Shown here piece after piece: positions 7,040 through 8,115 of a stretch of DNA of 42,787 nt. Position numbers and translations under genes: made by a program. Origin of the DNA: Bacteroidales bacterium (GTDB lineage Bacteria; Bacteroidota; Bacteroidia; Bacteroidales; UBA12077); the NCBI GenBank assembly GCA_030668615.1, contig DAOUTQ010000005.1, forward strand, positions 1 to 42,787, written 5' to 3'. Every line of letters begins with the position of its first letter. Positions within the stretch are counted from its first letter, which is position 1. A model generated the notes under the pieces. That model ran no database searches and was not told where the DNA came from. It was given only the letters and a program-made list of their open reading frames with translations.

Positions 7040-7077
7040 CAAATATATATATTGAACATGAAGTGAAAATGAAGAAA
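7040..7077 (-). promoter_or_regulatory. putative response-regulator site plus -7 box upstream of the repeat-protein gene
   Basis: Minus strand TTTCTTCATTTTCACTTCAT (7077-7058), 10-nt gap, TATATTTG (7047-7040). Confidence 0.7.
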
Positions 7078-7115
7078 ACGTATTATTGAAACAAAATATA
7101 TAGTACTAACCTATA

Positions 7116-8018
7116 TTAGAATAATCTTGGTCTTCTTTTTATTTCAATAACCTCGGTTACACCATCTCGAGTTATCTCTGCCAGATTATCGCATGTTCCG
7201 TCTCCATAATCTATAATAATCACTTCTTCGCCTTTCATTATTTCTCTAACACCTGAAACTATATACCTGAAACATCCTTCTTTGTTATCACGCACCAATG
7301 GAGTAGTTATTTCACAAGTTATTTCAGTTCCATCTGCAAGCGTAGAGTTTGAAGTACCTGTAATTTCAATAACATCATCATATTTATAATGAGTTTCAGA
7401 TCCTTCAATAGCTTCGCGTATACGCTCTGCATGCCAGCTTATTGTTCCTGCTTCTTCAGCAAGAATTATAGAGCCATCTGAAATAATTTCACTTATACGA
7501 TGCTGAGATTCGTTGATGTAACGATATACATATTTATTTCCTAAGATCTGATTGTCATCAACAAAATAATTTTCGAATGAGAATTCAATTTCAGTTTCCC
7601 CATCACCCCAGTAAGATCCATAATGGTTAATGTAAATTTTACCACGGCGCTCGCGTCCATCATTACATAAACAGTTTTCTTCGCCAAAATCAATAGTAAC
7701 AAACACTGAATCTTCTTCGTAAATACGAGTAACAACAGCGCAAGGACTTAAGCGGTTATAATTACCAATACCATCATTTTCAAAAGCGGATTTGGTTGAT
7801 GTGTTGTCCAGAAAATCAACTGCTTCATCTCCAAGATCTTCAACTTCATCAAACATCTCGGATGCGTACGATTCATTAATAATATCCGAATTTTCATCAA
7901 CAGTACTCACATCTTCATTCTTTTCACATGAAATAAAAAATACAGTAGCCATTAAAATTGCAAATACTGTAAAAAACCTGTAAATGGTTTTTGTTTTGTT
8001 TAAAAATTGTGCTTTCAT
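7116..8018 (-). CDS. putative lipoprotein, unknown function
   Basis: Signal peptide II with lipobox 'MATVFFISCEKNED'; Bacteroidota-style repetitive beta-rich body. Confidence 0.75.
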   Translation of the reverse strand: MKAQFLNKTKTIYRFFTVFAILMATVFFISCEKNEDVSTVDENSDIINESYASEMFDEVEDLGDEAVDFLDNTSTKSAFENDGIGNYNRLSPCAVVTRIYEEDSVFVTIDFGEENCLCNDGRERRGKIYINHYGSYWGDGETEIEFSFENYFVDDNQILGNKYVYRYINESQHRISEIISDGSIILAEEAGTISWHAERIREAIEGSETHYKYDDVIEITGTSNSTLADGTEITCEITTPLVRDNKEGCFRYIVSGVREIMKGEEVIIIDYGDGTCDNLAEITRDGVTEVIEIKRRPRLF

Positions 8019-8077
8019 AGTTTTGATTTTTTGTTAATAATAAATTGAATGTTTGTATTCATTTCTATTTCTGAAAA

Positions 8078-8115
8078 CAAATCTATTGAGTTAAAATGAA
8101 GTGAAAATGAAGAAA
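8078..8115 (-). promoter_or_regulatory. second copy of the putative response-regulator site plus -7 box, upstream of the lipoprotein gene
   Basis: Minus strand TTTCTTCATTTTCACTTCAT (8115-8096), 10-nt gap, TAGATTTG (8085-8078). Confidence 0.7.

What the first reader, a model, noticed from the sequence alone, without database searches (positions are those of the whole stretch)
7040..8115. Duplicated OmpR-type operator with fixed promoter spacing: candidate two-component regulon
An identical 20-mer (minus strand TTTCTTCATTTTCACTTCAT) occurs at 7058-7077 and 8096-8115. It contains CTTCAT twice at an 11-bp period, the spacing typical of OmpR/PhoB-family direct-repeat sites. In both copies exactly 10 bp separate it from a TAnnTTTG -7 box (TATATTTG, TAGATTTG), while the gap sequences themselves differ. 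The second half-site therefore sits where the -33 element would be, suggesting activation of a -33-less promoter. The targets would be the secreted repeat protein (6401-6961) and the lipoprotein (7116-8018). An orphan-looking OmpR-type regulator and kinase lie just downstream on the same strand (3413-5412).
Basis: partly seen in the sequence, partly recalled or inferred. Interest (0 to 1): 0.8.

Follow-up and report, generated by a model that had tools for sequence, protein, structure and literature searches.

The report
Self-regulated envelope two-component operator-promoter
Two identical DNA switches in front of cell-envelope genes of an uncultured Bacteroidales bacterium are conserved binding sites, very probably for the neighbouring regulator, which would switch on those genes and its own; this is a well-known type of control, but I found no description of this regulon.

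Summary
The 20-mer occurs only twice in the 3.33-Mb genome, at the stated places. It is CTTCAT-N5-CTTCAT (11-bp period), exactly 10 bp before TAnnTTTG.

The composite site recurs before orthologous genes in 16 of 20 same-genus genomes. With gaps of 4-16 bp allowed, all 32 matches had exactly 10; reversed-pattern controls gave 0. It recurs in four other families, before a lipoprotein / basic secreted protein / beta-barrel / OmpR-type regulator / kinase operon.

Operator and regulator orthologue go together: in the genus, 16 genomes have both and 4 have neither; among 395 order-level genomes, all 13 with a 70%-or-better orthologue have the site.

The regulator's recognition helix keeps PmrA's main base-contacting residues; PmrA's box is CTTAAT-N5-CTTAAT-like. 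The 10-bp gap resembles Pho-box geometry.

Best reading: the 4735-5412 regulator, phosphorylated by the 3413-4738 kinase, sits where a -33 element would be and activates the lipoprotein gene and the REP-OMP-RR-HK genes, hence itself. Binding, activation and signal are untested. New member of a known kind (PhoB/PmrA-type control).

The parts
7058..7077 (-). Operator 1 (TTT + CTTCAT-TTTCA-CTTCAT; half-sites 7074-7069 and 7063-7058) upstream of the REP gene
   Evidence: conserved before REP orthologues
7040..7047 (-). -7 box TATATTTG, 10 bp after operator 1
   Evidence: TA and TTG invariant in 39 aligned sites (partly selected on this pattern)
8096..8115 (-). Operator 2 (half-sites 8112-8107 and 8101-8096) upstream of the lipoprotein gene
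   Evidence: conserved before LIP orthologues in five families
8078..8085 (-). -7 box TAGATTTG, 10 bp after operator 2
7116..8018 (-). LIP: acidic lipoprotein (300 aa, mature pI about 4.2, lipobox Cys31), predicted all-beta, no Pfam family
6401..6961 (-). REP: secreted 18-residue-repeat protein with a strongly basic C-terminus (last 45 aa pI about 11.8); resembles in its tail the small basic secreted protein of relatives
6368..6390 (-). Hairpin (10-bp G+C-rich stem followed by TTTT) between REP and OMP; candidate attenuating terminator
   Evidence: not called by the simple scan (only 4 T in the tail)
5409..6287 (-). OMP: predicted outer-membrane beta-barrel (292 aa), no Pfam family
4735..5412 (-). 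RR: OmpR/PhoB-family response regulator, candidate binder of the operators; recognition helix S189-N198 (SNYIDVHIKN)
   Evidence: co-occurrence
3413..4738 (-). HK: membrane sensor kinase related over most of its length to the PorY model but below its cut-off; overlaps RR by 4 bp

Best explanation
The two 20-mers are class II (promoter-overlapping) operators of the OmpR/PhoB-type regulator encoded at 4735-5412. A sensor kinase (3413-4738) phosphorylates the regulator (inferred from family). A head-to-tail dimer binds the two CTTCAT half-sites (inferred by homology to PmrA), which occupy the place of the -33 element 10 bp upstream of a Bacteroidota -7 box (shown by sequence), and recruits RNA polymerase with the primary sigma factor (inferred). 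Transcription from operator 2 makes the acidic lipoprotein; transcription from operator 1 makes the basic secreted repeat protein and, by read-through of a hairpin at 6390-6368, the beta-barrel, the regulator and the kinase, which gives positive autoregulation (inferred from gene order). In other families the same genes form one operon, LIP - small basic protein - OMP - RR - HK, behind one operator (shown).
For: Only two exact copies in the genome, both promoter-proximal. Conserved composite site before LIP/REP orthologues in 16 of 20 same-genus genomes; all 32 matches have a 10-bp gap although 4-16 were allowed; reversed control 0. Same site before LIP-basic-OMP-RR-HK operons in families f23, f83, f172, f190; reversed control 0 in 395 genomes. 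Co-occurrence with the RR orthologue: genus 16 with both (RR partial at a contig end in G001) and 4 with neither; order sample 13 of 13 genomes with an RR of at least 70% identity have it. Recognition helix keeps PmrA Asn188, Val192, His193, Asn196 and wing Arg210 (RR N190, V194, H195, N198, R216), His195 replaced by Lys197; PmrA reads hexamers such as CTTAAT/CTTAAG separated by 5 bp (PMC3973317). E. coli Pho boxes lie 10 bp upstream of the -10 element (PMC1906773). Duplicated REP genes and one LIP-side cassette each carry their own operator.
Against: No binding, footprint or expression data. The genome encodes many OmpR-family regulators, so a different one could bind. Operator and regulator are neighbours, so shared descent and shared assembly gaps contribute to the co-occurrence. 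G692 has a one-mismatch site without a detected RR, and in G626 the RR lacks its receiver domain while the operator is intact. Direction of control is inferred from geometry only. The hairpin between REP and OMP could separate the RR from operator 1.
Confidence: 0.85

Rival explanations
1. The same regulator binds the same sites but represses, covering the promoter until a signal releases it.
For: The operator overlaps the whole -33 region, which is also compatible with repression.
Against: No separate -33 TTTG element is conserved that a polymerase could use without help, and the half-site to -7 gap is invariant, as expected for an activator touching sigma; repressor sites are usually freer in position.
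Confidence: 0.08
2. The conserved element is an extended -33 region of an alternative (ECF-type) sigma factor rather than a response-regulator operator.
For: Homologues of the lipoprotein elsewhere do lie under ECF-like promoters (GTAGGGTA-N14-CGGT) next to ECF/FecR genes.
Against: Those ECF promoters look quite different. Here the -7 box is the primary-sigma TAnnTTTG, the element is a 17-bp direct repeat with 11-bp period, and its constant companion is an OmpR-type regulator, not a sigma gene.
Confidence: 0.03
3. The operator is read by a different OmpR-family regulator of the genome, for example the 230-aa one (33% identical) near the C_GCAxxG_C_C operon on contig C9.
For: One conserved site lies close to that regulator in G000, G006 and G013.
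Against: Outside the genus the operator accompanies the 70-75% orthologue of the window's regulator; where that orthologue is missing in the genus, no site is found.
Confidence: 0.03
4. The 20-mer is a dispersed repeat or chance duplication without function.
For: Two identical copies 1 kb apart could in principle come from a local duplication.
Against: Only two exact copies in 3.3 Mb, different flanks and gaps, conservation in 16 genus genomes and four other families with invariant half-sites and variable gap.
Confidence: 0.01

Closest known systems
PmrA (BasR) and the PmrA box of enterobacteria
   Same: Direct repeat of two hexamers with 5-bp gap, CTTAAT/CTTAAG versus CTTCAT here; DNA-contacting residues largely conserved.
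   Different: Regulator scores 188.9 bits against a 330-bit cut-off for PmrA; different target genes; fourth half-site base C instead of A; Bacteroidota -7 promoter.
PhoB and Pho boxes
   Same: Tandem 11-bp-period repeats 10 bp upstream of the -10/-7 element, replacing the -35/-33 (PMC1906773).
   Different: Half-site sequence, sensor and targets differ; 181.1 bits against a cut-off of 296.2 (E. coli-type model) and 162.1 against 270 (Bacteroidetes PhoB model).
PorY sensor kinase of Porphyromonas gingivalis (PorX/PorY, type IX secretion)
   Same: The kinase here matches the PorY model over residues 7-424 of 441 (222 bits), its best hit.
   Different: Below the 350-bit cut-off; paired with an adjacent OmpR-type regulator.
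Sigma-ABfr promoters of Bacteroidota (TAnnTTTG at -7, TTTG at -33)
   Same: -7 box present at every LIP/REP site, a few with one mismatch (TATCCTTG, TATACTTG).
   Different: The -33 place is occupied by the operator.

Membership tests
OmpR/PhoB-family response regulator | Receiver domain (PF00072) plus winged-helix Trans_reg_C (PF00486) | tested here: met
   both above gathering score
OmpR/PhoB-type class II operator-promoter | Tandem repeat with 11-bp period overlapping the -35/-33 region at fixed distance from the -10/-7 box | tested here: met
   geometry compared with PMC1906773
OmpR/PhoB-type class II operator-promoter | Phosphorylated regulator binds and activates | not testable with these tools
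   needs EMSA and expression data
PmrA orthologue | NCBIfam PRK10643 equivalog cut-off (330 bits) | tested here: not met
   188.9 bits
PmrA-like DNA recognition | Asn188, Val192, His193, Asn196, Arg210 at the DNA interface | tested here: met
   all five conserved; Thr187 to Ser and His195 to Lys
PorY histidine kinase | NCBIfam NF052314 cut-off (350 bits) | tested here: not met
   222 bits over nearly full length
Sigma-ABfr promoter | -7 TAnnTTTG | tested here: met
   both window sites
Sigma-ABfr promoter | -33 TTTG element | tested here: not met
   no such element conserved in 39 aligned sites; operator occupies the place

The most novel reading that the evidence does not exclude
A distinct envelope-homeostasis circuit of Bacteroidales: the PorY-like kinase monitors an acidic lipoprotein / polycationic secreted protein / barrel set that it also controls, with a PmrA-like box shifted to CTTCAT, so that the products feed back on the sensor. 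The opposite charges (lipoprotein pI about 4.2, basic partners pI about 10.5-12) suggest that they bind each other.
Probability: 0.25. Interest if true: 0.65.

Novelty: new member of a known kind. Interest (0 to 1): 0.5.

Why it matters
Few response-regulator binding sites are defined at base level in Bacteroidota. Here comparison alone gives operator, promoter, regulator and core targets with little ambiguity, and shows that the PhoB/PmrA geometry (repeat 10 bp before the promoter box) is also used with the unusual TAnnTTTG promoter. It gives three protein families without any Pfam name (lipoprotein, basic secreted protein, barrel) a common regulatory context. The lipoprotein family is wired to ECF-like promoters in other Bacteroidota, a handle on regulatory rewiring.

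Tried and rejected
Dispersed repeat: rejected, two exact copies only and conserved positions. Wider class (n=396): scattered 1-2-mismatch hits, mostly in a few genomes of one genus and not shown to be linked to the regulator; treated as chance. Order-level weak hits in G082, G736, G795, G706: not linked to the system, treated as chance. Fold search of the lipoprotein model against the PDB gave nothing significant; the barrel model gave only general 12-14-strand barrels. Literature: nothing describing a CTTCAT-repeat regulon.

Full report
Observation. The 20-mer TTTCTTCATTTTCACTTCAT is present at 7058-7077 and 8096-8115 on the minus strand, with no further match up to three mismatches in the window; no shuffle of 100 had two. 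In the whole 3.33-Mb assembly these are the only exact copies; the next best have two mismatches. Each copy holds CTTCAT-TTTCA-CTTCAT and is followed after exactly 10 bp by TATATTTG or TAGATTTG.

Neighbourhood. On the same strand lie LIP (7116-8018, lipoprotein), REP (6401-6961, secreted repeat protein), OMP (5409-6287), RR (4735-5412) and HK (3413-4738); OMP/RR and RR/HK overlap by 4 bp. Only RR and HK have Pfam families. RR has both OmpR-family domains; its best curated models are RppA and PmrA, all below cut-off. HK matches the PorY model over most of its length but below cut-off. OMP is predicted as a beta-barrel. LIP is predicted all-beta without a significant match.

Conservation in the genus. 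In loci fetched by LIP homology or by the 20-mer, gene order is kept, and almost every LIP and REP gene has the composite site 35-136 bp before its start. A scan with the gap free between 4 and 16 bp gave 32 sites in 16 of 20 genomes, all with a 10-bp gap, against 0 for the reversed pattern. All 11 exact 20-mers found without asking for a promoter have it at that distance. In 39 aligned sites the four-base TTC and flanking half-site positions, TA and TTG are invariant while the gap is nearly free. Half-sites were fixed by the search, and some loci were chosen with the promoter pattern, so only the gap, the TTTC[AG] spacer and the flanks are independent there.

Beyond the genus. A scan of 395 genomes of the order found the site in families f23, f83, f172 and f190; the reversed control was 0. 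Fetched loci show one operator before a LIP - small basic protein - OMP - RR - HK operon (G511, G548, G718, G106, G598, G766, G626, G046, G529). G704 keeps an operator followed by a remnant of HK only, a likely relic. Regulators of 54-62% identity in f184 and f23 have slightly different sites such as [AG]TTCAT-N5-CTTCAT-N10-TAAnTT, which suggests the site evolves with the regulator.

Co-occurrence. In the genus, 15 genomes have the full RR and a sixteenth (G001) has it cut by a contig end; these are the 16 with the operator. The four without RR have no site. In the order sample, 13 genomes carry an RR of at least 70% identity, and all 13 have the operator, 12 with at most one mismatch and G529 with two. 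Exceptions on the other side are G626, whose RR has lost its receiver domain, and G692, without a detected RR. Relatedness and linkage mean that these counts are not independent trials.

Further targets. A relaxed scan found the site before an 82-aa / C_GCAxxG_C_C (PF09719) gene pair. Counting sites with at most one mismatch, 12 of the 16 RR-bearing genomes have it; the two RR-less genomes that have the gene lack it. A DUF6515 secreted protein has it in G000, G004 and G012. These sites have a weaker first half-site or -7 box and, for the first, a 210-260-bp leader; I call them probable (first) and possible (second).

Recognition. Aligned with Klebsiella PmrA (4s04), the RR helix SNYIDVHIKN (189-198) corresponds to TNTLEVHIHN (187-196). 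PmrA uses Asn188 and Asn196 for base-specific contacts, Thr187, Val192 and His195 for hydrophobic ones and Arg210 in the minor groove (PMC4660055); His193 was also implicated (PMC3973317). All but two (Thr187 to Ser, His195 to Lys) are identical here. PmrA's half-sites CTTAAT/CTTAAG are separated by 5 bp, so CTTCAT-N5-CTTCAT is what a close relative in DNA reading would be expected to bind. Pho boxes in E. coli lie 10 bp upstream of the -10 box (PMC1906773). Bacteroidota promoters have TAnnTTTG at -7 and TTTG near -33 (PMC7366714); here the -33 place is the operator.

Mechanism. Shown: conserved operator-promoter, gene order, co-occurrence. Inferred: phosphorylation, dimer binding, activation, autoregulation. 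A 10-bp hairpin with TTTT (6390-6368) between REP and OMP may let REP be made in excess of OMP-RR-HK. Function of the outputs is unknown. The mature lipoprotein is acidic (pI 4.2) and the small secreted proteins are strongly basic (pI 10.5-12; REP tail 11.8), so a charge-based complex in the envelope is a reasonable guess.

Side result. LIP homologues (33-40%) outside this system mostly sit behind GTAGGGTA-N14-CGGT, in 10 of the 14 upstream regions printed, often followed by ECF sigma, FecR and TonB-dependent receptor-like genes. The same lipoprotein family is therefore wired to two types of envelope regulation.

Verdict. It is an ordinary type of circuit in an undescribed instance, with unusually clean comparative evidence.

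Noticed in passing
L149, L151, L153-L155, L157-L159, L162, L163 upstream of the lipoprotein homologue: Lipoprotein homologues in other Bacteroidota lie behind a conserved ECF-like promoter GTAGGGTA-N14-CGGT, often followed by ECF sigma, FecR and a TonB-dependent receptor-like gene.
   Followed up: partly
L239 (G704:C7), 7147-7460: Apparent relic: operator intact, followed by a 38-residue remnant of the kinase; LIP, OMP and RR are gone.
   Followed up: partly
L198 (G626:C51), about 4382-4625: Response regulator reduced to its DNA-binding domain (residues 143-224) between an intact OMP and HK, operator intact; real or an assembly error.
   Followed up: partly
L208 7146 (G000:C9:7128) and orthologous places in other same-genus genomes: Operator-like site 210-260 bp before an 82-aa gene and a C_GCAxxG_C_C redox-protein gene; 12 of 16 regulator-bearing genomes have a site with at most one mismatch.
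   Followed up: partly
L209 6909 (G000:C209:26908): Operator-like site before a secreted DUF6515 protein with a His/Lys-rich N-terminus; also in G004 and G012.
   Followed up: partly
window 8182-8547 (+): Small lipoprotein gene divergent from LIP, its start 66 bp from operator 2; conserved next to the operator-bearing gene in several relatives, so it may share the control region.
   Followed up: no
window 6401-6961: REP carries an 18-residue repeat (54-bp DNA period, 4.2 copies) and varies from about 130 to 234 aa between relatives, with duplicated copies each having an operator.
   Followed up: partly
window 10458-12212 (-): Aldehyde ferredoxin oxidoreductase-like gene that stays near this locus in many same-genus genomes.
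   Followed up: no
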